Shown here piece after piece: positions 506-31,032 of a DNA stretch of 34,436 bases. This DNA is from Candidatus Avelusimicrobium aviculae. GTDB lineage: Bacteria; Elusimicrobiota; Elusimicrobia; Elusimicrobiales; Elusimicrobiaceae. Where the stretch lies: positions 1 through 34,436 of the forward strand of contig CALUXF010000017.1 of NCBI GenBank assembly GCA_944324655.1, read 5' to 3'. Each line of letters starts with the position of its first letter. The first letter of the stretch is position 1. The translations under genes were made by a program, and so were the position numbers. The notes below the pieces were generated by a model that searched no databases, was not told the origin of the DNA, and worked only from the letters and a program-made list of their open reading frames with translations.

Positions 506-514
506 TGCTAAAAT
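506..514 (+). promoter_or_regulatory. Extended -10 promoter of recG
   Basis: The sequence TGCTAAAAT ends at 514. The predicted transcript would start near 521 and begin directly with the AAGGA ribosome binding site at 521-525, so the leader is only about 12 bases before the GTG start codon. No clear -35 hexamer is seen. Confidence 0.45.
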
Positions 515-532
515 ATAAAAAAGGATTTTCCC

Positions 533-2626
533 GTGACAAAAAACCCCTTGCAATATTTAAAAGGCGTAGGCCCCGCCAAAGCCAAACTGTTTGAAAAGCT
601 GGAAATATCCACGCTTACGGATTTGCTGCATTACTATCCCCGCACTTATCAGGACCGGCGCCTCAACCAACCCCCCAACGATTATAACTCCGGCCAGCTT
701 ACCGTTTTTAAAGGCCGCGTACTCAACAGCCGGGAAATCCCCGCCCGCAATATCCTTATTTTTAAAGCATTTTTAGAAGATGAAAGAGGCCGACAAATAG
801 AATGCACCTGGTTTAAAAAAAGAATGTATGGGCGTTTTCGTTTTGATCCGTTTTATCAATTAAAAAAAGATTTCAAAATCAATGCGGAGGTATGGGTCAT
901 CGGCCGTCCGGAAAACCGCAACAATTTTTTTGGGGATAAAATAAACGTGGACGAATATTACCCCGTGTCTGACCCGCAATGCGCTTTGCACGCCGGGCGC
1001 ATTACACCCGTCTACGCTCTAACCGAAGGGCTTACCAACAAGCAATTCCGCCAGTTTATGCACGAGGCTTTGCAAACGGACACCTTAAATACAGAGCCGG
1101 AAATCCTCCCCCCTTCCCTCTTGCAAAAACGCAAACTGCTGGGCAGCGCGCAAGCGTTAAAAGGGATACATTTCCCCGGCAGTCTGACGGAGCTGGACGC
1201 CGCCAAAGCCCGCCTGGCGTATGAAGAATTTTTGCTTTTGGCCACCGCCTGGGGCATTAAACGCACCCAAACCAAAGTGCTGGAAAAGGGGTATCGCTAC
1301 ACCTTGAAAAGGAGCCTGCTTACCCCCTTTCGCCAAAATTTAGGGTTTGATTTTACAAACAGCCAAAAACACGTAATTAACGAGATTTTCCGGGATTTAC
1401 AATCCCCCCGCCCCATGAACCGCCTTTTACAAGGGGACGTGGGATCGGGCAAAACGGTGGTGGCGCTTTCCGCCATGCTGCTGGCGGCGGAAAACGGCTA
1501 TCAATCCGCCCTCATGGCCCCTACCGAAATTTTGGCGGAGCAACATTTTATCACCTTTGGAAAACTGCTTAAAAGCCTAGGCGTAAAAACAGCCATTTTA
1601 ACTTCCAGCACCAAAGCCGCCGCCAAAAAGAAAATACTAAAAGAATTGGCGGAAGGAAAAATACAAATTATCGTGGGCACTCATTCTTTAATCCAAGAAG
1701 ACGTGCAATTTGCCACCCTGCGCCTGGCGGTAATAGACGAACAGCACCGCTTTGGCGTACGCCAAAGAAGCCTGCTTAAGGAAAAAACCGCTAAGTTGGA
1801 TTTACTCACCATGACCGCTACCCCCATTCCCCGCACGTTGGCTTTGGCTTTTTATGGGGATTTGGAAGTTTCCACCATTAGCGAGCTTCCCCCCGGCCGC
1901 CGCCCCATAAAAACGGAAAGCGCCACGGAAAAACTGGCTTTTACGCGCGTGGCGCAAGAAGTGCAAAACGGGCGCCAGGCTTATATTGTTTACCCGCTTA
2001 TTGAAGAGAGCGAAAAAATATCCGCCAAAGCAGTAAGCGAAGAATTTGAAAAACTAAAAACCGTTTTTCCCCAGTTTAAATTGGCCATGCTGCACGGCCA
2101 AATGAGCCAGGAAGAAAAAGAAGCCGTCATGGCGGATTTTGCCTCCCACAAGACGGACATTTTGGTAGCCACCCCGGTTATTGAGGTAGGCATAGACGTT
2201 AAAAACGCTACGGTCATGGTGATTGAAAATGCCGAACGCTTTGGCCTGGCCAGCCTGCACCAGCTGCGCGGGCGCGTGGGCCGCGGGGAGCATGAAAGTT
2301 ACTGTATTTTAGTCCCCCAGCATGCGGGCAGCGTGGCTAAAGAACGGGTGGACATCATCTGCCGCACGAGCGACGGCTTTAAAATTGGAGAGCGCGATAT
2401 GCAGCTGCGCGGCCCGGGGGAAATTTTAGGCACCCGCCAAAGCGGGGAGCTGGAATTTAAAGCGGGAGACTTTTTTAAAGACCGCGACATCTTAACCTGG
2501 GCGATACAAGACCGTGATGAGCTTTTATCGCAAGACCCGTCTTTATCCCAACCCCAGCACGCGCTTTTTAAAGCCCGCCTGATCCAGCTGTATGAAAAGA
2601 ACTGGCATCTGATAGATTTAAGCTAA
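533..2626 (+). CDS. recG: ATP-dependent DNA helicase RecG
   Basis: RecG remodels stalled replication forks and branch-migrates Holliday junctions in the cytoplasm. The 697-residue length is typical. The N-terminal wedge/OB region begins with LKGVGPAKAKLFEKLEI. The Walker A motif GDVGSGKT is near residues 300-308. The Walker B variant DEQH is near 402-405, within VIDEQHRFGVRQR. Motif III (MTATPIPRTLAL) follows near 425, and motif VI lies in LRGRVGRGEHESYC. The C-terminal part has the RecG-type ERDMQLRGPGEILGTRQSG sequence. The start is GTG at 533, chosen because AAGGA lies seven bases upstream and the wedge domain starts immediately after. It is monocistronic and ends at a terminator shared with the convergent metG. 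Confidence 0.97.
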   Translation: MTKNPLQYLKGVGPAKAKLFEKLEISTLTDLLHYYPRTYQDRRLNQPPNDYNSGQLTVFKGRVLNSREIPARNILIFKAFLEDERGRQIECTWFKKRMYGRFRFDPFYQLKKDFKINAEVWVIGRPENRNNFFGDKINVDEYYPVSDPQCALHAGRITPVYALTEGLTNKQFRQFMHEALQTDTLNTEPEILPPSLLQKRKLLGSAQALKGIHFPGSLTELDAAKARLAYEEFLLLATAWGIKRTQTKVLEKGYRYTLKRSLLTPFRQNLGFDFTNSQKHVINEIFRDLQSPRPMNRLLQGDVGSGKTVVALSAMLLAAENGYQSALMAPTEILAEQHFITFGKLLKSLGVKTAILTSSTKAAAKKKILKELAEGKIQIIVGTHSLIQEDVQFATLRLAVIDEQHRFGVRQRSLLKEKTAKLDLLTMTATPIPRTLALAFYGDLEVSTISELPPGRRPIKTESATEKLAFTRVAQEVQNGRQAYIVYPLIEESEKISAKAVSEEFEKLKTVFPQFKLAMLHGQMSQEEKEAVMADFASHKTDILVATPVIEVGIDVKNATVMVIENAERFGLASLHQLRGRVGRGEHESYCILVPQHAGSVAKERVDIICRTSDGFKIGERDMQLRGPGEILGTRQSGELEFKAGDFFKDRDILTWAIQDRDELLSQDPSLSQPQHALFKARLIQLYEKNWHLIDLS

Positions 2627-5861: not shown

Positions 5862-6464
5862 TTAAGAAATGCCTTCCTGCGAGGTAATAATCTGCAGCTG
5901 CGGGAGGGAGTATCCCTTCCAAGAAGAGTTTTTTATACACTCTATCAACGGCTCCAGCTTGCCTTGGGCATCTAAAATAAGGTCCGTCATTTCGCGGTAG
6001 GCGCCGTCCCCCCCTTGGCGGGAAGTAATATAATGGGCCGCTTTTTTCACCTGCTCCACCGCGTTGGGCACCGTAACGGCTAAACCCACTTTTAATAAGA
6101 GGGGCAAATCCGTTATATCGTCCCCAATAAAAGCCACTTCTTCCGGGCGGAGATTCTCCCTTTTCAAAATATCTTCCAGCGGGCCCGTTTTAGTTAAAAA
6201 CCCCTGGTAAATATAAGAAAAACCCAACGCCCGCGCCCGGTACACGGTAGAGGGATGACGGCGGCCCGTAATAATACCCTGCTTAATTCCGCAGGATACA
6301 CACATGCGGGAAGCTATGCCGTCTAATGCGTTGAAAGTCTTAAATTCGTCCACACGGCCGTCGGGCAGGGCAAAAAAATTCAATTTGCCGTCCGTAAGTA
6401 TACCATCCACATCGGTTAATATGGCCTTTATCTTGGCGGCGCGTGCGCGCAATTCTTCGTTCAT
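5862..6464 (-). CDS. kdsC: 3-deoxy-D-manno-octulosonate 8-phosphate phosphatase (KdsC-type HAD)
   Basis: KdsC hydrolyses Kdo-8-phosphate to Kdo for the LPS inner core. The HAD nucleophile pair is in TDVDGILTDG (D18, D20). The cap-less C1-type layout includes KTFNALDGIASRM, the motif-II region GIITGRRHPST, the lysine segment KTGPLEDIL, and the metal motif GDDITDLPLL near 117-125. Late KdsC-specific features are YITSRQGGDGAYREMTDLIL and a length of 200 residues. It heads the operon with tmk, holB and metG. No Shine-Dalgarno sequence is visible, and the predicted leader is only about five bases. Related HAD phosphatases (YrbI-like sugar phosphatases) are the main alternative. Confidence 0.88.
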   Translation of the reverse strand: MNEELRARAAKIKAILTDVDGILTDGKLNFFALPDGRVDEFKTFNALDGIASRMCVSCGIKQGIITGRRHPSTVYRARALGFSYIYQGFLTKTGPLEDILKRENLRPEEVAFIGDDITDLPLLLKVGLAVTVPNAVEQVKKAAHYITSRQGGDGAYREMTDLILDAQGKLEPLIECIKNSSWKGYSLPQLQIITSQEGIS

Positions 6465-6475
6465 ATATATTAGGT

Positions 6476-6484
6476 ATTATACCA
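6476..6484 (-). promoter_or_regulatory. Extended -10 promoter of the kdsC operon
   Basis: The minus strand reads TGGTATAAT, a consensus extended -10. The hexamer ends 11 bases before the kdsC ATG, predicting a leader of about five bases without a ribosome binding site. Confidence 0.5.
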
Positions 6485-6579: not shown

Positions 6580-9111
6580 ATGCCAAAAAGATTTACAGAA
6601 AATGCGCAAAAAATTATTCTCATCGCGCAGGAAGAAGCCAAACGTTTAAACCATGACTATGTAGGCACGGAACATATTTTGCTGGGGCTGGCGGCCATAG
6701 ACGGCACCGTTTCCGGCAAGATTTTAACCGGCTTGGGGATTACCTTTCGTAAAATACGTTTAGAAATTGAAAAGATGATCGGCATTGGGGACACTATTAT
6801 GCTGCTGGGGGAAATTCCGTTTACGCCCAGAGCCAAAAAAGTGTTGGAATTCTCGGTGGAAGAATCCCAAATGCTGGCTACGGAATACATCGGCACGGAA
6901 CACATTTTACTGGGATTAATCCGGGAAGAAGAAGGCATGGCCTGCAAAATTTTGGAAAATTTAGGCCTTAGCTTAAATACCGTGCGCGAAAGCGTATTAA
7001 ATTATATAGGCGATGCCGAACCCGGGGATTTGACGGAAGACCTGTCGGATATCCCCCAGGAAATGAATCTGCCCAACCGGGAAGATTCCCTGCGCAAAGC
7101 GGCGCCCGGCAAAAAGAAAAGCAAAACCCCCACGCTGGACGAATACACCCGCGATTTAACCGCCCTGGCCAAAGCCGGCAGTTTGGACCCGGTCATCGGC
7201 CGTGAGGAAGAAATAGAACGCCTGGTACAGATTTTAGCCCGCCGCACCAAAAACAACCCGGTTTTATTGGGTGAACCCGGCGTGGGCAAAACGGCCATTG
7301 TGGAAGGGCTGGCCCAAAAAATCGCCAAAGGGGAAATTTCCGACGTGCTCAGCGGAAAGCGCCTGCTGGCGTTGGATTTAGCCTCCGCAGTGGCGGGCAC
7401 CAAGTACCGCGGGGAGTTTGAACAGCGTTTAAAGAACATTATTGATGAAATTTCCGCCGCCCAAGACGCCATTATTTTTATTGATGAGCTGCACACCATT
7501 ATAGGGGCCGGCGCGGCGGAAGGGTCTATAGACGCGTCCAACATGTTAAAACCCGCCTTGGCCCGCGGGGAAGTGCAGTGCATCGGCGCCACCACCTTTG
7601 ACGAGTACCGCAAATACATTGAAACCGATACCGCCTTGGAACGCCGTTTCCAGCCCATTACGGTGGACCCGCCGGACATTGAAGAAACTGTTACCATTTT
7701 AAAAGGCATACGTTCCAAGTACGAACAACACCATAAAGTAAAATATACCGATGAGGCCCTCCAGGCCGCCGCCGCCATTGCGGACCGGTATATTACCGAC
7801 CGCGCCATGCCGGATAAAGCCATAGACCTTTTTGACGAAGCCGGCGCACGCGCGCGCCTTAAAAACGCGGTGCTCCCCCCGGAAATTAAAGAGAAGCAAA
7901 AAGAATATACCCAAGCCGTAGAAGAAAAAGACGAGGCGCTCTCCAACAAAGAGTTTGAAAAGGCCGCCGCCGCCAAAGACACCGAGGAACGCCTTAAAAG
8001 CTATATAGAACATTTAAAGAAAAAATGGCAGGAAGAGCGGGACCAAAAACAGCCCGAAGTAACCCAGGAAGACATCGCTTTGGTAGCCAGCAAGTGGACC
8101 GGCATTCCCGTAACGCGCCTGACCCAAAGCGAGACGGACAAAATCCTGCATATGGAAGAACATTTGCATGAGCGTATCATCGGGCAGGAAGAAGCCGTGC
8201 GCGCCGTTTCGCAGGCTATCCGCCGCAACCGCACCGGCTTGGGCAACCCCAAACGCCCGATAGGCGGTTTCCTGTTCCTGGGCCCCACCGGGGTAGGAAA
8301 AACCGAGCTGGCCAAAAGCTTAGCCATGTTTTTATTTGGGGACGAAGACGCCATGATCCGCTTAGACATGTCTGAATACATGGAAAAATTTGCCGTATCC
8401 CGTTTAATTGGGGCGCCTCCAGGCTACGTAGGTTATGAGGAAGGCGGGCAGCTGACCGAGGCCGTACGCCGCCGCCCGTACAGCGTGGTGGTGTTAGACG
8501 AACTAGAAAAAGCCCACCCGGATATTTACAATATTTTATTGCAAGTGCTGGACGAGGGGTATCTGTCTGACAATTTAGGCCACAAGGTAAGCTTTAAAAA
8601 CTGCGTGGTGATTATGACATCCAACGTAGGCGCGCGGGAAATTACCAACAAAGGCAGCAGCTTGGGTTTTGCCGCCAAAAATACGGAAGAACAACAATAC
8701 CAGGATATGCGCCAAGGCGTAATGGACGAAGTAAAGAAAACCTTCAACCCGGAATTTATCAACCGTATTGATGAAATTGTAGTGTTCCATTCGTTAAATA
8801 AAGACAATATCGCCAAAATTTTGGACTTGGCCTTAAAAGACGTGGACGACAAACTGGCGGAAAAAGAATTAACCCTTCAGTTAACCCCGGCCGCCAAAGA
8901 GTTTTTAATAGAACGCGGCTTTGACGCCAAATACGGCGCGCGCCCGCTCTTGCGCACTTTACAGCGCGAATTGGAAGACCCGCTGGCCGAAAATATTTTA
9001 GTCAGCCGTTACGCGCCGGGCACCACCATCCGCGCGGATTTAGACAAATCTTCCAACAAATTAACGTTTAAAAACGCCGCCGCCACGGCTAAACGCGCGG
9101 CGCTGATTTAA
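6580..9111 (+). CDS. clpC: ATP-dependent Clp protease ATP-binding subunit ClpC
   Basis: ClpC is an AAA+ unfoldase that feeds proteins to ClpP. The N-terminal double Clp repeat is seen twice as YVGTEHILLGL and YIGTEHILLGL within residues 1-150. Walker A1 GEPGVGKT is at 231-238, pore loop 1 in GTKYRGEFEQRL near 272, and Walker B1 IIFIDELHT near 300. A coiled middle/UVR-type segment (NKEFEKAAAAKD) lies near 445-480. Walker A2 GPTGVGKT is at 568-575, pore loop 2 GAPPGYVGYEEGG near 611, and VLDELEKAHP near 639. The start is ATG 6580 (MPKRFTENAQ), with CAGGGG just upstream. The frame is open further upstream, but that part lies over the divergent kdsC gene. The protein has 843 residues. The middle insert separates ClpC from ClpA. 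recA follows 20 bases later. Confidence 0.95.
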   Translation: MPKRFTENAQKIILIAQEEAKRLNHDYVGTEHILLGLAAIDGTVSGKILTGLGITFRKIRLEIEKMIGIGDTIMLLGEIPFTPRAKKVLEFSVEESQMLATEYIGTEHILLGLIREEEGMACKILENLGLSLNTVRESVLNYIGDAEPGDLTEDLSDIPQEMNLPNREDSLRKAAPGKKKSKTPTLDEYTRDLTALAKAGSLDPVIGREEEIERLVQILARRTKNNPVLLGEPGVGKTAIVEGLAQKIAKGEISDVLSGKRLLALDLASAVAGTKYRGEFEQRLKNIIDEISAAQDAIIFIDELHTIIGAGAAEGSIDASNMLKPALARGEVQCIGATTFDEYRKYIETDTALERRFQPITVDPPDIEETVTILKGIRSKYEQHHKVKYTDEALQAAAAIADRYITDRAMPDKAIDLFDEAGARARLKNAVLPPEIKEKQKEYTQAVEEKDEALSNKEFEKAAAAKDTEERLKSYIEHLKKKWQEERDQKQPEVTQEDIALVASKWTGIPVTRLTQSETDKILHMEEHLHERIIGQEEAVRAVSQAIRRNRTGLGNPKRPIGGFLFLGPTGVGKTELAKSLAMFLFGDEDAMIRLDMSEYMEKFAVSRLIGAPPGYVGYEEGGQLTEAVRRRPYSVVVLDELEKAHPDIYNILLQVLDEGYLSDNLGHKVSFKNCVVIMTSNVGAREITNKGSSLGFAAKNTEEQQYQDMRQGVMDEVKKTFNPEFINRIDEIVVFHSLNKDNIAKILDLALKDVDDKLAEKELTLQLTPAAKEFLIERGFDAKYGARPLLRTLQRELEDPLAENILVSRYAPGTTIRADLDKSSNKLTFKNAAATAKRAALI

Positions 9112-9131
9112 CATTTTAAGGAGAAACCATC

Positions 9132-10214
9132 ATGGACGCAAACAAACAAAAAGCCCTTGATTTAGCCTTAGGCCAAATAGAAAAAGCCTTTGGAAAAGAA
9201 GCCATTTGCAAGCTGGGTGACAGCAGCATAAAAAAAGTGGAAGCCATCCCCACCGGCGCTTTATCGTTGGATTTAGCGCTGGGCGTAGGAGGTCTTCCGC
9301 GCGGGCGCGTAATTGAGATTTACGGCCCGGAAGCCGGCGGTAAAACCACTTTATCGCTGCATGTGGCCGCCCAAACCCAAAAAATGGGCGGAACCGTGGC
9401 CTTTATTGACGCGGAACACGCCTTAGACCCGGTATACGCCACCGCTTTAGGCGTAGATGTGGACGAATTATTGGTTTCCCAGCCCGACTCGGGCGAACAA
9501 GCCCTGGAAATTGCCGAAAAGCTGGTACGCTCCGGCGCGATTGACTTAATTATTATAGACTCCGTAGCCGCCCTGGTGCCCAAAGCCGAAATTGAAGGCG
9601 AAATGGGAGACGCGCATGTAGGCTTGCAGGCCCGCTTGATGAGCCAAGCCCTGCGCAAACTGACCAGCATTTTAAGCAAAACCAAAACCAGCATTATTTT
9701 CATCAACCAAATCCGCCAGAAAATAGGCGTGATGTTTGGCAACCCGGAAACCACCCCCGGCGGTTTGGCCTTAAAGTTTTATTCTTCCGTGCGTATAGAC
9801 GTGCGCCGTATTGAAAACATCAAAAAAGGCGATGAAATCATCGGCACCCGCGTACGCGCCAAAGTAACCAAAAACAAAGTGGCGCCGCCCTACCGCCAGG
9901 CTGAGTTTATGATGATTTTAGGGCAAGGTATTTCCCGCGAGGCCTGCATCATAGACAAAGGCGTGGAAGCCGGCTTTATTGAAAAAAGCGGCAGCTGGTT
10001 CTTGTATGGGGAAGAAAAACTGGGCCAAGGGTTAGACAACGCCCGCCAATACCTGTTGGACAACCCGGACTTGGCCAACGAAATACAAGACAAGCTGTTT
10101 GTAAAATATTTGGGCCATCATTATGACGGGAAACAACTCTCCCCGGAAGAGACCGCCCAAAAAGAACAAGACGCAGCCAAAGCGTCCGCCTCTAAAAAAA
10201 CAGCTAAAAAATAA
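9132..10214 (+). CDS. recA: Recombinase RecA
   Basis: RecA forms ATP-dependent filaments on single-stranded DNA for recombination and SOS coprotease activity. The 360-residue protein has the core motifs: Walker A GPEAGGKT (65-72), the glutamate-containing [13 protein letters not shown] near 95-107, Walker [16 protein letters not shown] near 140-155, the loop L1 region [20 protein letters not shown], and the L2 region [21 protein letters not shown]. The P-loop has AG where almost all bacterial RecA proteins have SS or AS. The tail is alanine/lysine-rich (ending KKTAKK), unlike the acidic tail of E. coli RecA. AAGGAG lies just upstream of the ATG, and a strong terminator follows. Confidence 0.98.
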
Positions 10215-10222
10215 CTTCACTT

Positions 10223-10250
10223 CCCCGGCCCTCACAGGCCGGGGTTTTTT
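10223..10250 (+). terminator. Intrinsic terminator after recA
   Basis: Stem CCCCGGCC/GGCCGGGG (10223-10230 and 10237-10244) with loop CTCACA is followed by six T residues. Confidence 0.9.
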
Positions 10251-10287
10251 ATCCCTCAAATACGTTTCTGCGCTAAAAGTAATTTTC

Positions 10288-10293
10288 TATAAT
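10288..10293 (+). promoter_or_regulatory. -10 hexamer upstream of the GT-C glycosyltransferase
   Basis: A consensus TATAAT lies 26 bases before the ATG at 10320. The predicted leader of about 20 bases includes GCGGGA as a possible ribosome binding site. No clear -35 is visible. Confidence 0.4.
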
Positions 10294-10319
10294 ATGTAAA
10301 ACCCCCTGCGGGAAAACAT

Positions 10320-11783
10320 ATGCATAAAAAATTTACTAACATTATTTTTTATATCAGTGTGATTGTCAGCGCGGTGCTGGCGTTTTATCTGTTTTTACAG
10401 CGCTTTGCCAATTTATCGGCAGGGTTTTCGTATGATGAGCTTTACTCCCTAGCTACGGCGCTTCCATCTCTTCCCTTATCCCGTATTTGGAATGAATTTT
10501 TAATAAAAGATGTCAACCTCCCGCTTTACAACATTTTGCTGTATGGCTGGAACCACGTTTTCCCGTTAGAGCCGTTTTATATGCGGCTGTTCAACACGCT
10601 GGCCAGTGCGGCCGCCGTGCCGCTGGTTTGGTTTTTGGCGCCTAAATCCTGGCCCCAATACCCGCGTTTTACCTTAACAGCGTTAACGGCGGGATCATTT
10701 CTGCTAATTGCGTTTGGGGTAAATATAAGGGCGTATTCGTTTGCGTTGTTGGCGGCTTTTGCCTTTACGCTGCTGGCCCTGCGGATTATTGACGCCGTTA
10801 TGCAGCGCATCTATCCGCCCAAAAGCCTGTGGGCGGGTTTCTTTATAACCGGATTTTTAGGCAGCTATTTACATTATTTTTGCTCCGCCGTGTTTTTTAT
10901 AGCGGCCTTGGTGGTTTTCTTATACGCCTGCGCGTATAAAACGGGGCGCAAAACCGCTTTTTGGGGTACGGCCGCCGTATTTGCCCTGTGGCTTCCGTGG
11001 GTAATTAACACGTATCAGATTATGGCGTCTCCGCACGGGTCGTGGTGGTATGTGGCCCCGCTGGCGCGCTCCACATGGGACACAATTACTTTTTTAGCGG
11101 GCGGAGCGGTTATGGCCGGTTTTTGGCTGGTATTTTTTATTGTGTCGGGGGTTTCATTCGTACATGAACAAAAAGCCGGCATTTTTAAATGCCCGGCTGT
11201 CATCTTGCCTTTGGCTCAAATCATTTTGCTGGTGATTACCGTTCTGATTTTATCTCTTAAATATAATCTGTGGCTGGACCGTTACTTCCTGCTAAGCGTT
11301 CCCCCGTTTTTATTGTTAATTACCCAATGTTTAACCCATTTGCAAAAACGCCACGCCATATTGGTGCTTTTACTGCCTTTCATTTTAACAGTTTGGACAA
11401 ACCAATACTGGAAATTAGACTATCTGCGCAACCCTGAATACACGGGCCTAAAAGAAGCTTTTCATTTTGTATCCAACACATTAAAAGCGCAAAAAGTATT
11501 GGTGGACTCCGCCAAAACAGGTTATCCGTCGGACTCCTTTTCGCTGATGCTTCAATATTACATTCCAAAAGAAAGCCCGCTGCGCATTGAAATTTTAACC
11601 CCTCAAAACGCACAACAAGCTTTTGAGGAGCCCAAAATACCCGTATTACTGCCGCTGTGCTCGCAAATACACATGATACAGGCCAGCTTGGATTATAATA
11701 TGGAGGAGGACCACCCGCCTCTTATCTTTGGAAAGGACGTGTGCGTTTTTACCGTCCACCCCATACCGGAGAAAGCGAAATGA
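10320..11783 (+). CDS. Polytopic membrane glycosyltransferase, GT-C / PMT (GT39-like) family
   Basis: The 487-residue protein has roughly ten to eleven hydrophobic segments and is expected in the inner membrane. The first outward loop contains SYDELYSLATALP and KDVNLPLYNILLYGWNHVF. This is the acidic-residue loop typical of polyprenyl-phosphate-sugar-dependent GT-C enzymes such as ArnT and PMT_2 proteins. Later segments include AFGVNIRAYSFALLAAFAF and a soluble C-terminal domain after about residue 380. Family knowledge suggests transfer of a sugar from a lipid-phosphate carrier to a protein or envelope glycan. The acceptor cannot be read from the sequence. The stop overlaps the next gene's start as ATGA, so the two genes are coupled. 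Confidence 0.7.
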   Translation: MHKKFTNIIFYISVIVSAVLAFYLFLQRFANLSAGFSYDELYSLATALPSLPLSRIWNEFLIKDVNLPLYNILLYGWNHVFPLEPFYMRLFNTLASAAAVPLVWFLAPKSWPQYPRFTLTALTAGSFLLIAFGVNIRAYSFALLAAFAFTLLALRIIDAVMQRIYPPKSLWAGFFITGFLGSYLHYFCSAVFFIAALVVFLYACAYKTGRKTAFWGTAAVFALWLPWVINTYQIMASPHGSWWYVAPLARSTWDTITFLAGGAVMAGFWLVFFIVSGVSFVHEQKAGIFKCPAVILPLAQIILLVITVLILSLKYNLWLDRYFLLSVPPFLLLITQCLTHLQKRHAILVLLLPFILTVWTNQYWKLDYLRNPEYTGLKEAFHFVSNTLKAQKVLVDSAKTGYPSDSFSLMLQYYIPKESPLRIEILTPQNAQQAFEEPKIPVLLPLCSQIHMIQASLDYNMEEDHPPLIFGKDVCVFTVHPIPEKAK

Positions 11784-12667
11784 AGCCTTTTTTATTGGAA
11801 GATTTTGCCAACCACCTCACGTTTGAGCGGCAGCTTTCCCCTAACACCGTAAACGCTTATAAAAGCGATGTGGAAAGCTATTTGGAATATTGTTTGGCCA
11901 ATGAAAAAGACCCTCAACAAATCACCCCGGAATTTTTAGACCAATACCTTTACCAATTACGTGTGATAGAAAAATTGGCCCCGGCAAGCGTGTTTCGCAA
12001 AACGGAAGCAGTAAAAAGTTTGTATAAATTCCTACTGGTGGAAGAGGAGATAAAAGAAGACCCCACCCGCTTTTTAAAATCCCCTAAACTGGCGCAAAAA
12101 ATACCGGTGCAGCTTTCGCGCGAAGAGATGGACCGTTTGTTATCTTATCCCGCCAAAAAATTTGACGAAGTACGCACGCTGACTATTATTGAGCTGCTCT
12201 ACGCCGCCGGCTTGCGCGTAAGCGAGTTAATCAACCTGCGCCTAGAAAATGTAAACCTAAAAGAAGGCTGGGTATTGGCTTTTGGCAAAGGCGGCAAACA
12301 ACGCTTTGTTCCCATCCACCCGCAAGCCTGCAAACGCCTTAAACAATATATGGAATTGCGGGAAGCTCACTTTGCCGCTAAAATAGTGGGGAGCGAACTC
12401 TTTTTAAATAAGAACGGCAAAAAAATAAGCCGCCAAAGCGTGTGGAAAGATTTAGCCGCCTTAGGCCGCCTGGCGGGGATATCCCAGCCGCTGCACCCTC
12501 ATTTATTCCGCCATACCTTTGCCAGCCACTTGCTTCAGGGCGGGGCGGACCTAAGAAGCCTGCAGGAAATGCTGGGGCACGCCAATTTAACCACCACGCA
12601 AATCTACACCCATTTAAACGTGGGGGATTTAAAAGAAAAACATAAAAAATTTCACCCGCACGGATGA
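11780..12667 (+). CDS. xerD: Tyrosine recombinase XerC/XerD family
   Basis: Xer recombinases resolve chromosome dimers at dif. The N-terminal SAM-like core-binding domain covers residues 1-90 (FANHLTFERQLSPNTVNAYKS). The catalytic domain carries R146 in AAGLRVSELINL, a lysine in GKGGKQRFVPIH, the HLFRHTFASHLLQGG box (H241, R244), LGHANLTTTQIY and nucleophile Y276. At 295 residues the length fits XerC/XerD. I favour XerD from DPTRFLKSPK, but XerC or a single Xer are possible. The start is ATG 11780, which overlaps the upstream stop by four bases and has GGAG at 11768-11771. A GTG 13 codons upstream in the same frame is rejected. No dif-like site was identified. Confidence 0.9.
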   Translation: MKPFLLEDFANHLTFERQLSPNTVNAYKSDVESYLEYCLANEKDPQQITPEFLDQYLYQLRVIEKLAPASVFRKTEAVKSLYKFLLVEEEIKEDPTRFLKSPKLAQKIPVQLSREEMDRLLSYPAKKFDEVRTLTIIELLYAAGLRVSELINLRLENVNLKEGWVLAFGKGGKQRFVPIHPQACKRLKQYMELREAHFAAKIVGSELFLNKNGKKISRQSVWKDLAALGRLAGISQPLHPHLFRHTFASHLLQGGADLRSLQEMLGHANLTTTQIYTHLNVGDLKEKHKKFHPHG

Positions 12668-13881: not shown

Positions 13882-13890
13882 TGATAAAAT
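13882..13890 (+). promoter_or_regulatory. Extended -10 of leuS, predicting a leaderless transcript
   Basis: TGATAAAAT ends at 13890 and six bases (GAATTT) separate it from the ATG at 13897. The predicted start point is therefore the A of the start codon. No Shine-Dalgarno sequence is present. Confidence 0.5.
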
Positions 13891-13896
13891 GAATTT

Positions 13897-16410
13897 ATGA
13901 GCATAGATAACTTTCCCCAAATAGACAAAAAACAACAAGAACGCTGGGAAAAAGAAAACCTTTTTGCCAGCCCCAAACTGCCCAAAGGCAAAAAATTTTA
14001 TTGCCTGGATATGTTTCCGTACCCGTCCGGCGCGGGCTTGCACGTAGGCCACCCGGAAGGATACACCGCCTCTGACATTCTTGTTCGTTTTAAGCTAATG
14101 AACGGCTATGACGTGCTTCATCCCATGGGGTGGGACGCGTTTGGCCTGCCGGCGGAAAACTATGCCATCGCTACCGGGATACATCCGCACGTTACCACGC
14201 AAAAAAATATTTCCAATTTTAAACGCCAAATTAAAGCCATCGGCTTAGCCTATGACTGGAACCGTGAAATCAACACCACGGACCCGGACTATTACAAATG
14301 GACCCAATGGATTTTTTTACAACTCTTTAAAAAAGGCTTGGCCTATGAGTCTACCGTACCGATAAACTGGTGCCCTTCCTGCAAAACCGGCCTGGCCAAC
14401 GAAGAAGTTTTCAACGGCAAATGCGAACGCTGCGGCCACGAAATAGAACGCAAAGCCCTGCGCCAATGGATTTTAAAAATTACCGCCTATGCCGAACGCC
14501 TGCTGGAAGACCTGCCCACCTTGGACTGGCCGGAAAGCACGCTGACCATGCAAAAAAACTGGATAGGCAAATCCCAAGGGGCCAATGTGGTGTTTAAGCT
14601 GGACGGGCACAACGAAACCTTAACCGTATTCACCACCCGGCCGGATACGCTTTTTGGCGCCACCTATATGGTAGTGTCTCCGGAGCACCCCATTTTGCAA
14701 AAAATCACCACGCCGGAGCAAAAAACCGCCGTGGAAAAATACCAGGCAGACTCCGCCAAAAAGAGCGATTTTGAACGCGCCGATTTAAACAAAAACAAAA
14801 CCGGCGTGTTTACCGGCGCCTACGCCATTAACCCCGTTAACGGCAAAAAAATACCGGTGTGGACGTCAGACTATGTGCTTATGGGCTACGGCACCGGGGC
14901 CATTATGGCCGTGCCCGCCCATGACGAAAGAGACTACGCCTTTGCCAAAAAATTCGGTTTAGACATTATTGAAGTCATCAAAAGCGAACAAGGCGTAGAA
15001 AAAGAAGCGTTCACCGGGGACGGGGAGCTGGTCAACTCCGGCTTCTTAAACGGGCTTCGGGTAAAAGAATCCAAAGCCGCCATGATTAAATGGCTTGAGG
15101 AACACGCCTGCGGCAACGCCAAAACCACGTATAAACTGCGGGATTGGGTGTTTGCCCGCCAGCGCTATTGGGGGGAACCTATCCCCATTGTGCACTGCCC
15201 CAAATGCGGGGTGGTGCCGCTGCCGGAAGACCAACTGCCGCTGCGCCTGCCGGAAGTGGAAAAATTTGAGCCGTCCGGCACGGGGGAATCCCCCCTGGCC
15301 ACGGTGGACAACTGGGTAAACACCACCTGCCCCCAATGCGGCGGCCCCGCCAAGCGCGAAACCAACACCATGCCCCAATGGGCCGGTTCCTGCTGGTATT
15401 ATTTGCGCTACATGGACCCCAAAAACGACAAAGCCTTGGTAGACCCCGCCATAGAAAAAGCCTACGGCCCGGTGGATTGCTACATAGGCGGAGCCGAACA
15501 CGCCGTATTACACTTGTTATACGCGCGCTTTTGGCATAAAGTATTGTTTGATTTGGGGATAGTGTCCCATAGGGAGCCTTTCCAAAAATTACGCCACCAA
15601 GGTATGATTTTGGCCTACTCTTACCGGGACAAAATGGGCGCTTACCACGCTTATGAAGACATTGATTTTAAAGACGGGAAAGCTTATTTAAAAACCACCG
15701 GGGAAGAATTAACCCCCATGGTGGAAAAGATGTCCAAATCCAAGAAAAACGTCATTAATCCCGACGACATCCTCTGCCAATACGGGGCGGACGCTTTCCG
15801 CATGTATGAAATGTTCATGGGCCCGTTTGAAGCCAGCAAACCCTGGGATATGAAAGGCATTGAGGGCATTACCCGCTTTCTGCGCCGCGTAGCCCAATGG
15901 GGTGAAAACGCCGTGTTAAAAGACGGACGCGATGAACGGAAACTGGAAATACTTAAAAACAAAACCATCGCCAAAATTAATGAGGATATAGAAAACTTCC
16001 GCTTTAATACGGCTATTTCCGCCTTAATGGTATTTTTTAACGAAGCCGGCAAACTGCCCCAAGTAAGCAAGCATACGTTTGAGACGTTCATCAAACTCTT
16101 GCACCCGTTTGCCCCGCACCTGACGGAAGAAATCTGGCAGCTGCGCGGTTACCCGGGGTTTGTGGTAAAAAGCGCTTGGCCGCAAGTGGACCCGAACCTC
16201 CTGCAAGACGACATGGTGGAAATAGGCGTGCAGGTAAACGGCAAAGTGAGAGACCGTATCCAAATACCGCCCGCCGCCCCCAAAGAAGAAATTGAAAAAT
16301 TGGCCTTAGCCAGCGCCAAAGTGCAGCGCAATTTGGAAGGCCTGGAAGTAAAAAAAGTAATTGTTGTACCCGGCCGGATGGTAAGCATTGTGGCCGCACC
16401 TAAAAAATAG
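13897..16410 (+). CDS. leuS: Leucyl-tRNA synthetase
   Basis: This class I synthetase charges tRNA-Leu and edits mischarged products. The HIGH box is HVGH (residues 49-52) within [15 protein letters not shown]. Zinc-type CPSC...CERC and CPKC...CPQC pairs are present. The CP1 editing domain shows [21 protein letters not shown] near residue 250 and [17 protein letters not shown] near residue 335. KMSKS is at 611-615. The full length of 837 residues is usual for bacterial LeuRS. It is the first gene of leuS-lptE-holA, an order also found in E. coli. The ATG follows the -10 hexamer after only six bases and has no ribosome binding site. Confidence 0.97.
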
Positions 16411-18834: not shown

Positions 18835-18843
18835 TGTTAAAAT
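18835..18843 (+). promoter_or_regulatory. Extended -10 of uvrC, predicting a leaderless transcript
   Basis: TGTTAAAAT ends at 18843, then AAAAAA, then the ATG at 18850. The predicted start point coincides with the start codon and there is no Shine-Dalgarno sequence. An imperfect inverted repeat, CCGGGC...GCCCGG (18813-18831), lies just upstream. Confidence 0.5.
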
Positions 18844-18849
18844 AAAAAA

Positions 18850-20181
18850 ATGGATCCCAGGCTTTCTATTTTACCAAATAAACCCGGCGTTTACATCATG
18901 CGTTCCAAAGAGGGCGCCATTATTTACGTCGGAAAGGCCAAAAACCTGGCGGACCGGGTAAAACAATATTTCCAAGCCTCCAACCTCTATTCCCGCGGCT
19001 GGAAACTGCCCTGCCTGCTGCCCCTCATCGCTAAAATTGATTACGTAACCACCGCCAGCGAAAGAGACGCCCTTGTATTGGAAGAGAAACTAATCAAACG
19101 CTACCAGCCCTTTTTTAATTCTTTAGGCAAAGACGGCAAAAGTTACCCTTATTTAAAACTGACCATGGGGGAAGACTTTCCCCGCCTGCATTTAACCCGC
19201 CGCCGTACCCCGGGGAAAGATTTGTACTTTGGGCCGTACCCCAAATCCAGCATTGTCAAAAGCCTGCTGCGCTTTTTATGGAAAAGCAAATACGCCCCGC
19301 TGCGCCCGTGCAAGTGGAATTTTTCCCGCCAAAAACCGCTGGACGAAAAAAAAATTAAAACCTGCATTTACTACCATACCGGCCAATGCCCGGCCCCCTG
19401 CGCGGGGAAAATATCTTATGAGCGATACCGCGAAATCGCCCAGCGCATGGCTTTGTTTTTAGAAGGAGATTTTGACAACATCACCCGCAGCATTACGGTG
19501 TTGATGCGCCGTTGTTCCCAAAATTTAGAGTATGAGCAAGCCGCCGTGTACCGCAATTTTTTACAAGCGCTGGAACACATGAAAGAACGCGTGCTGGTGG
19601 GAAAATTTAAAGAAGAAAAAATTATTACCGCCATGGATAATACCGATAAACTAAAACGCTTGGCGGAGGTCATCGGCATGCATAAACTGCCGGCCCACAT
19701 AGAAGCGTTTGACAATTCCCACCTGTTTGGGCGGGAAGCCGTAGGCTGTATGGTGTGTTTTATAAACGGTGAAAAAAATACCGAACACTACCGGCGTTTT
19801 AAAATACGCTCCAAATTGCCGCAGCGGGGCGGGAGCGATTTTACCATGATGGAGGAAAATGTATTCCGCCGCCTGCGCCAAATCAAAAGGGACCCCTCCC
19901 AAATGCCCGACTTAATTTTGCTGGACGGCGGAAAAAGCCAAATACACGCCGCCATGAACGCTTTTGAGCGGGCGGGACTGTATATACCGTTTATCGCGCT
20001 GGCGGAAACGCATGAAGGAATTTACCTGCCGGGCGCCGCCGAAAGCATCAAACTGCCTATCGGGGACCCGGCCCTCAACCTGCTTATGGAAATACGCGAT
20101 GAAGTCCACCGTTTTGCCATTACCTACCACCGCAAACTGCGCGACAAGCAAACCTTGTCAGACGGGCCCATGACCGCTTAG
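18850..20181 (+). CDS. uvrC: UvrC-like excinuclease subunit, short form without HhH domain
   Basis: UvrC makes the dual incisions in nucleotide excision repair. The GIY-YIG domain is residues 6-90 (NKPGVYIMRSKEGAIIYVGK and ERDALVLEEKLIKRYQPFFN). A cysteine cluster follows (CIYYHTGQCPAPCAGKIS, near 175). The UVR segment is near 205-245 (LEYEQAAVYRNFLQAL). The RNase H-like endonuclease domain shows EAFDNSHLFG, LILLDGGKSQ and RDEVHRFAITYHRKLR. The protein then ends at 443 residues, where UvrC proteins of about 600 residues continue into the tandem helix-hairpin-helix DNA-binding domain. There is no sign of that domain or of a frameshift in the 48 bases before the next gene. Incision without the domain is an open question. 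The gene stands alone with a leaderless-type promoter. Confidence 0.88.
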   Translation: MDPRLSILPNKPGVYIMRSKEGAIIYVGKAKNLADRVKQYFQASNLYSRGWKLPCLLPLIAKIDYVTTASERDALVLEEKLIKRYQPFFNSLGKDGKSYPYLKLTMGEDFPRLHLTRRRTPGKDLYFGPYPKSSIVKSLLRFLWKSKYAPLRPCKWNFSRQKPLDEKKIKTCIYYHTGQCPAPCAGKISYERYREIAQRMALFLEGDFDNITRSITVLMRRCSQNLEYEQAAVYRNFLQALEHMKERVLVGKFKEEKIITAMDNTDKLKRLAEVIGMHKLPAHIEAFDNSHLFGREAVGCMVCFINGEKNTEHYRRFKIRSKLPQRGGSDFTMMEENVFRRLRQIKRDPSQMPDLILLDGGKSQIHAAMNAFERAGLYIPFIALAETHEGIYLPGAAESIKLPIGDPALNLLMEIRDEVHRFAITYHRKLRDKQTLSDGPMTA

Positions 20182-20217: not shown

Positions 20218-20223
20218 TACAAT
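20218..20223 (+). promoter_or_regulatory. -10 hexamer of the TIKI-like gene, leaderless spacing
   Basis: TACAAT is followed by six bases and then the ATG at 20230, which places the predicted start point on the start codon. The preceding GGCCTTTT and CCCTGCCA blocks recur upstream of the decayed copy. Confidence 0.4.
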
Positions 20224-20229
20224 AGAGAT

Positions 20230-21426
20230 ATGAGACTGTTTCCCCTTTGCGTCAATATGCTGGCAGGAAGCTTACTGATCGGGTTGTCTGCTTCTGGCCT
20301 GCAGGCGCAGCCATACTCCCAACGTGCTTTTAAAGGAATACAAAAAGCCTGTAAGCGCCACCCCAGCAAAAACCCATATTTTAAAAAACAACGCCAACAG
20401 ACACCCTCTTTTAAGAAAAAGGAAGAATTAAAAAAATGGCAAAAAGAGGTGGAAAAAAATTTCTCGGCCGCCGCGGCGGAAGCCCAACTTCTGCAGCTTA
20501 CAAAAAATCCCTTCGCAAAAACCCTGCTGGGCCAATTTGATGAACTGGTTTCTTCTTTTCCGGCCGCGCTGCCAGCGGAGGTGCTGGCCCGCAATAACAC
20601 CATGGCGGCATTGTTCCGCAAACATTTTATAAGCCGTATCCGTTACATACAAAACAACCGGGAAAGTATCCTGCAACACATTGAACAAACCGTTTCCGCT
20701 AATCCGCCCGATTACTTGGCTTTGCTGGAAGATAAAAATGTTATTTTTGCCGCCGTACACCATTATGCCCCTTTTCTGGCGCCGGCTTCGCATGAAATTG
20801 TGTCTTTGGTAAAACAATATAAGGCAAAAAATCCAAAAGCGCAGGTCTTAATAGCGGCCGAGGCTTTATCCACCACTTTAAACGGCAAGCCCGTCCCGTT
20901 GCTGACGGAAGAAAACCTTTCTTTAGAATGGCTGAAAGCCAATCACTGGGGACCCTCTTTTAACCCCTATACCCCCCTAGCCCAAGAAAACGGTATTTCC
21001 TTTTTACCGTTGGAAAATTATACCCAGTTATTAAAATACGGAAAAGAAAACCAAACGCTTTACGCTAAATCCCCCCTGGGGCTGGAAGAACGCAACCGGC
21101 AGTGGGCCAAACGCATTGCAGAAGAACGGAAAAGAAAAATATTAGAAACCGGGGAAGATTATGATTTAATTTTGGTAATAGCCGGCGAAGCACACCTGCG
21201 GTATATGTTTCCCCAAAATTTACCGGCCATTATGAAGGAAAAACGTGCCGCCGTAATAGATTTTTCTTTGCGGGATGCCAAGCTTTTTGCCAATTATTTT
21301 TGGGACAAATTGCCCGGCGGCACGGCACGGCAAATGATCCCCCTTCAATACTATATAATCAAACAAACAGACCCCAAAACCGCCCAATTATTAGGGGCGG
21401 ATTTATACATAAACACCCCCTTATAG
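20230..21426 (+). CDS. Exported protein, possible TIKI/TraB/ChaN superfamily
   Basis: The 398-residue protein starts with a Sec-type signal peptide ending around LQAQ (residues 1-27). It is lysine-rich to about residue 75. The core shows FAAVHHYAP (H177-H178), a following SHEIVSLVKQY, VLIAAEAL, LEERNRQWAKRIAEE and IAGEAHLRYMF (E320, H322). The combination of an early His motif, a Glu, an RN-helix and a late G-x-x-H motif resembles the TIKI/TraB/ChaN metal-dependent hydrolase and haem-binding superfamily. I cannot confirm membership by search. Activity in the periplasm is inferred from the signal peptide. A frame-broken paralogue follows. Start ATG has no Shine-Dalgarno sequence. Confidence 0.5.
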   Translation: MRLFPLCVNMLAGSLLIGLSASGLQAQPYSQRAFKGIQKACKRHPSKNPYFKKQRQQTPSFKKKEELKKWQKEVEKNFSAAAAEAQLLQLTKNPFAKTLLGQFDELVSSFPAALPAEVLARNNTMAALFRKHFISRIRYIQNNRESILQHIEQTVSANPPDYLALLEDKNVIFAAVHHYAPFLAPASHEIVSLVKQYKAKNPKAQVLIAAEALSTTLNGKPVPLLTEENLSLEWLKANHWGPSFNPYTPLAQENGISFLPLENYTQLLKYGKENQTLYAKSPLGLEERNRQWAKRIAEERKRKILETGEDYDLILVIAGEAHLRYMFPQNLPAIMKEKRAAVIDFSLRDAKLFANYFWDKLPGGTARQMIPLQYYIIKQTDPKTAQLLGADLYINTPL

Positions 21427-21484
21427 GCCTTTTGGCCCCACACACCAGGGACTTTGGGCCCTGTCTTTTCCCCTGCCACCTGTT

Positions 21485-21490
21485 TATAAT
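21485..21490 (+). promoter_or_regulatory. -10 hexamer of the decayed TIKI-like copy, leaderless spacing
   Basis: Consensus TATAAT is followed by AATAAT and then the ATG at 21497, the same six-base spacing as in the intact upstream copy. Confidence 0.4.
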
Positions 21491-21496
21491 AATAAT

Positions 21497-22567
21497 ATGA
21501 AGCCTATTTTGCACCTCTGTTTACTTAGTATGCTGCTTTTTCCACCTGCCCCACGCATGGTTACGCCCAACGTTGGTTAAAACCCTTTCATAAAACCTCC
21601 AAAAAAGTTTTCCCCCAACAAACGCTAGCGGCAAGCTGTGTTTTTCCTTTCACGAAACAAGAAATTAAAAACGCCGCCAGGCAAGCCGAACAAATGTGGG
21701 AATTACAGCAAATCAACGCCGCCTTAGATAAAAAGTTTTGGCAGACTGGGCTTTGCAGCAAAGTGTGCGGATACAATCCCACGCGTACCACAAAGAGGCG
21801 CAGCATTTGGCTTTTATCCGCCACCATGCGCAGCGCATGCAAGCTACTTTGAAGCGTGATTTTGTACATATAAACGCCGTAAACTACACCCCTTTTATTA
21901 AAGATAAAAACAAAATACTGGTGGCGGCAGACTGGAACCCCGGCTCCCAACTGCAAATAGCCAAATTGTTAGAAACCATACGGAAACAAAACCCGCAAAA
22001 CAAAATAATAGTAGCCAGCCCTTTCATTCCTCCCAGCGCCCGGCCGTACGCATCGGGGCAATATAGTCGCTTTTTTAAAGACAATGGGGCAGACCTGTTT
22101 TTCAAACAATTATTGCGCCAACCCCATATGGTATTAGTAAATTTGAAAACAACAGAAGGTTTGTCAGTTAAAAACCAGTGGAAAAATTGGCTGGGAGAAA
22201 TAACCCCGCACTATCCCCCATCTATTTTGGGAAAAAACAAAGATATTTAATCATCATCGCGCCGACACGCTTTATTGAAGGAAATGCGGCACAGCTCAAA
22301 CAAGAGTGGCAAAACAGACTCTTTTGGAAGCAAGACAAAATACTCACTCTATCCATACGAACCCAAAAAGAGAGCAACCTGAGCGATTTTAAATGGGAAA
22401 TAATCACCTCCCGCGGGAAAACCCCCATTCCCGCCCCCTATATAAATGGTTGGCTGTTAAACGCTTTTGTGGACCGGGTAGACCCGCAGTTTAGCACGGT
22501 GTTAGGGACAGATGTGATCGTCCGCGTACATCCGCAGCTCCCCCCGCGGCGCCCGCGCCAAGAATAA
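21497..22567 (+). pseudogene. Decayed tandem paralogue of the TIKI-like exported protein
   Basis: Three frames must be joined to read this gene. Residues from 21497 give a signal peptide (MKPILHLCLLSMLLF), which shifts near the T run at 21537-21541 into HGYAQRWLKPF. It shifts again near 21736-21739 into the frame with FIKDKNKILVAADWNP, and again near 22232-22237 into KKQRYLIIIAPTRF and STVLGTDVIVRVHP. These segments align in order with the neighbour's DKNVIFAAVHHYAP, YDLILVIAGEAHLRY and TAQLLGADLYINTP. Each shift fits loss of one base in a homopolymer. The putative active-site motifs are also lost (HHYAP becomes ADWNP, GEAH becomes APTR). Repeated sequencing error is the alternative, but no other gene here shows one. 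Confidence 0.75.
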
Positions 22568-30397: not shown

Positions 30398-31017
30398 AAC
30401 TCAAACACCGCCGGCAGACAGGAAAGCACAATAATGGCCACTATAACATAGTGGAAATGGTTTTGCACCACAGGCAAATCCGCAAAGAAATAGCCGCCCA
30501 AGGTAAACAAAAGCACCCACAGCGCGGCCCCTATTAAGTTGTAAGAAGCAAAGTGGAAATAGGTCATTTTCCCTATTCCGGCCACAAACGGGGCAAACGT
30601 GCGGATAATGGGGATAAAACGCGCCAAAATAATTGTTTTACCGCCGTATTTTTCATAAAAAGAGTGGGCTTTGTTTAAATGGTCTTTGTTTAAAAAAATA
30701 CTGTCTTTGCGGGTAAACACTTTGGGGCCGAACCATTTGCCTATTTCATAATTGCAAAAATCTCCTAGTACGGCGGCGGCAAACAGCACGGGAATTAATA
30801 TCCACAAATCAATGGGGCTGCCGGCGGTAGCGGCCAGCGCGCCGCACGCAAAAAGCAGGGAATCCCCCGGCAGAAACGGCGTAACCACCAGGCCCGTTTC
30901 ACAAAAAACCACCACAAAAAGCACCACGTACAGCCAAACGCCCATCATACCGGCCCAGGCGTTAAGATGCGCGTCTAGATGTAAAAAAATATCCACTATT
31001 TGAGCTAAAATTTCCAT
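30343..31017 (-). CDS. DedA family membrane protein
   Basis: DedA proteins move undecaprenyl phosphate and related lipids across the inner membrane and support envelope homeostasis. The 224-residue protein has the family features: ETGLVVTPFLPGDSLLFACG near residue 40, LGDFCNYEIGKWFGPKVF near 85, and ARFIPIIRTFAPFVAG near 132, the conserved arginine stretch. Several hydrophobic segments follow, with a basic C-terminus. The ATG follows the -10 hexamer after six bases and lacks a Shine-Dalgarno sequence. It is followed by nagZ in the opposite direction with 55 bases of overlap and no visible terminator between them. Confidence 0.92.
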   Translation of the reverse strand: MEILAQIVDIFLHLDAHLNAWAGMMGVWLYVVLFVVVFCETGLVVTPFLPGDSLLFACGALAATAGSPIDLWILIPVLFAAAVLGDFCNYEIGKWFGPKVFTRKDSIFLNKDHLNKAHSFYEKYGGKTIILARFIPIIRTFAPFVAGIGKMTYFHFASYNLIGAALWVLLFTLGGYFFADLPVVQNHFHYVIVAIIVLSCLPAVFEFYNERRKACRSSRKDVAP

Positions 31018-31023
31018 ACTTAT

Positions 31024-31032
31024 ATTTTAACA
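31024..31032 (-). promoter_or_regulatory. Extended -10 of dedA, predicting a leaderless transcript
   Basis: On the minus strand TGTTAAAAT is followed by ATAAGT and then ATG at 31017. The nine-base element and the spacing are identical to those of uvrC. No -35 hexamer is evident. Confidence 0.5.

What the first reader, a model, noticed from the sequence alone, without database searches (positions are those of the whole stretch)
18835..18852. A set of genes with the -10 box exactly six bases before the ATG: predicted leaderless mRNAs
Five genes show the same geometry: leuS (TAAAAT-GAATTT-ATG), uvrC (TAAAAT-AAAAAA-ATG), dedA (TAAAAT-ATAAGT-ATG), the TIKI-like gene (TACAAT-AGAGAT-ATG) and its decayed copy (TATAAT-AATAAT-ATG). 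Six bases after a -10 hexamer places +1 on the A of the ATG, and none has a usable Shine-Dalgarno sequence in the predicted mRNA. Other genes in the window (recA, rpsT, pilin, yajQ) have normal leaders, so two translation-start modes seem to coexist. kdsC is close to this class with a five-base leader.
Basis: partly seen in the sequence, partly recalled or inferred. Interest (0 to 1): 0.65.

Follow-up and report, generated by a model that had tools for sequence, protein, structure and literature searches.

The report
Leaderless gene starts in Elusimicrobia
In this gut bacterium and its relatives about one gene in twelve has its promoter pressed up against its start codon, so the message probably begins at the first letter of the gene; this way of starting genes is known from other bacteria, but I found no report of it for this group.

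Summary
All five TANAAT-N6-ATG strings are present: four precede intact genes (leuS, uvrC, a TIKI-like gene, dedA), the fifth a frameshifted relic.

In 434 kb of the host genome (class Elusimicrobia, 1.62 Mb), 30 of 565 candidate start ATGs have TANAAT exactly six bases upstream. About 2.3 are expected at other spacings, and 3 of 344 out-of-frame ATGs match. Almost nothing lies closer than six bases.

The sites look like extended -10 promoters: TGn precedes 14/29, and all eight sampled tRNA genes carry TGnTAnnnT. They sit at transcription-unit starts (29/30); many other genes use Shine-Dalgarno sites.

Orthologues keep the element. uvrC has it in 17/17 congeners at fixed spacing. dedA has it wherever it heads a unit and lacks it in the four genomes where it directly follows another gene.

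The N6 excess occurs in Elusimicrobiaceae and most sampled sister families of the class, but is absent or marginal in other classes of the phylum.

Best reading: extended -10 promoters making leaderless (0-3 nt) mRNAs, a mode known in Deinococcus and Actinobacteria. Transcription starts are unmapped, so +1 on the A is inferred.

The parts
18835..18852 (+). uvrC leaderless-type start: TGT (18835-18837), -10 TAAAAT (18838-18843), six-base spacer (18844-18849), ATG (18850-18852)
   Evidence: sequence; TG and TA...T invariant and spacing six in 17/17 same-genus orthologues
13882..13899 (+). leuS start: TGA, TAAAAT, GAATTT, ATG
   Evidence: sequence; box conserved among orthologues, spacing 6-9
20218..20232 (+). 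TIKI-like gene start: TACAAT, AGAGAT, ATG; no TGn
   Evidence: sequence; nearest relative has TAAAAT-ACTGCT-ATG, same spacing
21485..21499 (+). start region of the decayed TIKI-like copy: TATAAT, AATAAT, ATG; the reading frame after it is broken
   Evidence: the corresponding copy in the nearest relative reads TATAAT-ATTAGT-GTG
31015..31032 (-). dedA start: TGT (31032-31030), TAAAAT (31029-31024), ATAAGT, ATG (31017-31015)
   Evidence: sequence; TANNNT-N6 in 22 of 29 orthologues, absent in the four that follow a gene by 2-6 nt
6462..6484 (-). kdsC-like gene: TGG (6484-6482), TATAAT (6481-6476), 11 nt, ATG (6464-6462); short-leader neighbour of the class
   Evidence: sequence; Pfam HAD hydrolase

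Best explanation
These are housekeeping-type extended -10 promoters, consensus roughly WWTGnTA[ACT]AAT, placed so that RNA polymerase starts on or within a few bases of the A of the start codon, six bases after the -10 box. The mRNAs are leaderless, or have 0-3 nt leaders, and are translated from a 5'-terminal AUG without a Shine-Dalgarno sequence. About 8% of all genes in the sampled part of this genome, and about 12% of genes that head a transcription unit, use this mode; many of the rest have Shine-Dalgarno sites. Shown from sequence: the spacing excess, the promoter motif, restriction to unit-first genes, conservation and lineage distribution. Inferred: use of the housekeeping sigma factor, the +1 position, and leaderless-type initiation.
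For: Spacing peak at six in-frame only. TGn before 14/29 boxes against 32/1074 coding and 67/457 other intergenic TANAAT. TGnTAnnnT upstream of all 8 sampled tRNA genes. TGnTAnnnT-to-ATG distances: 4 cases in all at 0-5 nt, then 13 at 6, the floor expected if the transcript must contain its AUG. 29/30 sites head a unit against 211/344 other genes. uvrC 17/17 and dedA 25/29 conservation (N6-N8), with loss in exactly the four genomes where dedA follows another gene by 2-6 nt. N6/N12 ratio 1.9-3.8 in f1, f2, f7, f8 against 0.96-1.25 in other classes.
Against: No transcription-start data. T at -1 is also common at other genes (54%), so it is weak evidence for +1 on the A. About half of the 29 sites lack TGn. 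leuS spacing varies 6-9 among relatives. Gene starts came from a simple caller of my own. Secondary upstream promoters cannot be excluded.
Confidence: 0.85

Rival explanations
1. The boxes are real promoters, but the true start codons lie downstream, so the messages are ordinary leadered ones and the adjacent ATG is misread as the start.
For: Start codons were predicted, not measured; the coding-score caller sometimes preferred a start 27-57 nt downstream.
Against: N-terminal residues from M1 are conserved in uvrC, leuS and dedA orthologues, and the ATG itself is invariant in the uvrC set. In-frame but not out-of-frame ATGs show the excess.
Confidence: 0.06
2. The TANAAT box is a translation-enhancing AT-rich element rather than a promoter, with transcription starting further upstream, as in non-Shine-Dalgarno initiation of Bacteroidetes-like type.
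For: AT-rich sequence just upstream of starts is known to aid translation in some groups (own knowledge).
Against: The same TGnTAnnnT motif precedes tRNA genes, which are not translated. The element is missing at operon-internal genes and in operonic dedA orthologues, where a translational element would still be needed.
Confidence: 0.06
3. Base-composition chance: AT-rich intergenic DNA produces TANAAT near ATG.
For: TANAAT is common in AT-rich intergenic DNA.
Against: Neighbouring spacings and out-of-frame ATGs in the same DNA show no such excess. GC-rich relatives show the strongest N6/N12 ratios (G125, GC 63%: 80 against 9), while AT-rich genomes of other classes show none.
Confidence: 0.01

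Closest known systems
-10-motif (TANNNT) leaderless genes of Deinococcus-Thermus (PMC12340547)
   Same: A -10 box immediately upstream of the ORF serves as promoter for leaderless mRNA and coexists with Shine-Dalgarno-led genes.
   Different: There about 30% of ORFs and shown by experiment; here about 8% and by sequence only. Extended -10 TGn is a strong feature here.
Bacterial leaderless genes with TA-like signals about 12 bp upstream of the start (Zheng et al. 2011, PMC3160421), including Actinobacteria
   Same: Same signal and same distance: the first T of the box lies 12 bases before the ATG here.
   Different: The held text does not name Elusimicrobia. In this genome the N6 class is almost only ATG: 29 ATG, 1 TTG, no GTG.
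Leaderless transcriptome of Mycobacterium tuberculosis (PMC3898074, seen as abstract only)
   Same: Promoter whose start point coincides with the start codon, in many genes of one genome.
   Different: Mapped by RNA sequencing there; not mapped here.

Membership tests
[quoted passage not shown]
   29-30 in-frame start ATGs at N6 against about 2.3 expected
Bacterial leaderless genes with a -10 box adjacent to the ORF | box acts as a promoter | tested here: inconclusive
   motif shared with tRNA promoters, TGn extension, restricted to unit-first genes; no expression test
Bacterial leaderless genes with a -10 box adjacent to the ORF | no Shine-Dalgarno sequence in the transcript | tested here: met
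   0/29 sites have a Shine-Dalgarno-like match at -15 to -4; largely forced by the fixed box
Bacterial leaderless genes with a -10 box adjacent to the ORF | mRNA 5' end at the start codon | not testable with these tools
   no RNA data for this lineage; one paper matched Elusimicrobium with transcription start site and its title and abstract concern sigma-54

The most novel reading that the evidence does not exclude
Leaderless initiation from extended -10 promoters is a lineage trait of most of class Elusimicrobia, weak or absent in sister classes. It is retained gene by gene (uvrC, dedA) with a nearly fixed six-base geometry and changes together with operon structure. The sample includes several translation and repair factors (leuS, peptide deformylase, rbfA, bS6, an HflX-like GTPase, mutS, ruvA, uvrC), so the mode could mark a regulatory class; enrichment of such functions was not tested.
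Probability: 0.35. Interest if true: 0.55.

Novelty: new member of a known kind. Interest (0 to 1): 0.42.

Why it matters
It extends a non-Shine-Dalgarno way of starting genes to a lineage for which I found no report in the open literature held here. It offers many closely related genomes in which gain and loss at single genes can be followed, and a simple promoter code (TGnTAnAAT) that would improve start-codon annotation in a group known largely from metagenomes. The contrast between classes of one phylum makes the gain or loss of leaderless usage testable.

Tried and rejected
Coding-score gene starts were noisy, so an in-frame versus out-of-frame ATG contrast was used instead of trusting single starts. 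The reversed-pattern control of the genome search does not end in ATG, so a same-pattern N12 control was run. T at -1 as proof of +1 on the A was downgraded, because other genes show it too. No -35 signal was seen in the 29-site profile. Small samples of several relatives were too thin, so larger ones were taken.

Full report
What is there. The five TANAAT-N6-ATG strings are real. The window is contig 17 of a 1.62-Mb, 53-contig genome. Its nearest named relatives by LeuS are Elusimicrobiales/Elusimicrobium metagenome genomes at 83-86% identity. Pfam confirms LeuS, UvrC and a VTT-domain (DedA-type) protein; the TIKI-like protein has no Pfam match. The 'decayed copy' is broken in all frames. The sixth match in the window (7739) lies inside the clpC-like ORF.

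Is it more than chance? Over 434 kb of the own genome, TANAAT-Nk-ATG on both strands peaks at k=6 (53), with k=7 at 34 and k=28 at 36; most other spacings lie between 11 and 27. Restricted to candidate gene starts, in-frame ATGs give k=5: 1, k=6: 29, k=7: 7 of 567; out-of-frame ATGs in the same DNA give 2 of 338 at k=6. A second gene-calling run gives 30/565 against 3/344 (Fisher P = 3e-4; against other spacings Poisson P about 3e-23). 25 of the 29 sites lie outside the window. The genome has 134 matches in all against 61 for the same pattern with N12. Of the 25 genes outside the window, 21 have a Pfam domain, among them MutS, RuvA, peptide deformylase, RbfA, bS6, an HflX-like GTPase and LytB; four have none.

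What the element is. At the 29 sites, positions not used for selection are non-random: T 21/29 and G 19/29 at -15/-14 (an extended -10) and A 24/29 at -6. T is 23/29 at -1, but 54% of other genes also have T there. TGn precedes 14/29 of these boxes, 32/1074 coding TANAAT and 67/457 other intergenic TANAAT. All eight tRNA genes found in the sample carry TGnTAnnnT 18-66 nt upstream. Since tRNA genes are not translated, the motif is best read as a promoter. Distances from TGnTAnnnT to the next in-frame ATG show a floor: 4 cases in all at 0-5 nt, then 13 at 6, 5 at 7, 3 at 8, 5 at 9. That is expected if transcription starts about six bases after the box and the transcript must contain its AUG. No -35 signal is visible in the profile.

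Context. 29 of 30 N6 genes head a transcription unit by distance or divergence; 133 of 344 other genes lie within 20 nt of a same-strand neighbour (P = 3e-5). Other genes have Shine-Dalgarno-like sequences in 45-53% of cases against 8-9% in a control interval. The two modes coexist, and published work lists Elusimicrobia among classes with a CCUCCUUU anti-Shine-Dalgarno (PMC10783764).

Conservation. In 17 same-genus uvrC orthologues TG and TA...T are invariant and the spacing is always six, while the N6 itself (0.56 mean major-base frequency) and the DNA upstream of -20 (0.42) vary. dedA has TANNNT-N6 in 22 of 29 genomes, and by eye N7 or N8 in three more (L233, L253, L250). The four without any such box (L242, L243, L252, L255) are exactly those in which dedA follows another gene by 2-6 nt. 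leuS keeps the box at 6-9 nt, so a leader of 0-3 nt is likely there. The TIKI-like orthologue in the nearest relative has a different box at the same spacing, and the neighbouring copy reads TATAAT-N6-GTG. Orthologues are related, so these counts are not independent events.

Distribution. N6/N12 ratios, summed for 88 of the 150 genomes: own genus 2.6, other Elusimicrobiaceae 1.9-2.2, f2 1.9, f7 3.1 (up to 8.9), f8 3.8, f5 and f6 1.7-1.9 (one genome each), f3 1.4 (one genome, not significant), f4 0.98, f9 1.1. Families f10-f22 of other classes give 0.96-1.25; f10 (1.15) is statistically above 1 but small. In-frame start counts agree: G125 (GC 63%) has 4 and 5 at N6 and N7 where most other spacings have 0-1; G034 has 11 at N6 against about 3; G012, outside the class, has 3 at N6, no more than at other spacings.

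Mechanism and status. The best reading is extended -10 promoters giving leaderless or nearly leaderless mRNA. Shown by sequence: spacing, motif, position in units, conservation, lineage pattern. Inferred: sigma factor, +1 on the A, initiation at a 5'-terminal AUG. The mode is known: Zheng et al. 2011 put bacterial TA-like signals about 12 bp upstream of the start (PMC3160421), and Deinococcus-Thermus has been worked out by experiment (PMC12340547). I found no report for Elusimicrobiota in the open library, but most subscription papers are not held there. It is a new lineage for a known kind, not a new kind.

Noticed in passing
window 506-533 (+): recG: TGCTAAAAT followed by 18 nt to a GTG start, with AAGGA between; the same extended -10 promoter type at a short-leader gene with a Shine-Dalgarno-like site.
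   Followed up: no
window 20230-22560 and genome contig 10, about 7584-11868: The TIKI-like gene belongs to a paralogous family with tandem copies elsewhere in the genome and in several congeners; a frameshifted copy lies just downstream of the window gene.
   Followed up: partly
families f4 and f9 of the class: Sampled genomes of these two families lack the N6 excess although their class mates have it, suggesting loss or that they never gained it.
   Followed up: no
[quoted passage not shown]
   Followed up: partly
29 N6 genes of the own genome sample: Several are translation or repair factors (leuS, peptide deformylase, rbfA, bS6, HflX-like GTPase, mutS, ruvA, uvrC). Enrichment was not tested.
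   Followed up: no
L262:2720-2745: In the nearest relative the second TIKI-like copy has TATAAT-ATTAGT-GTG, a possible leaderless GTG start.
   Followed up: no
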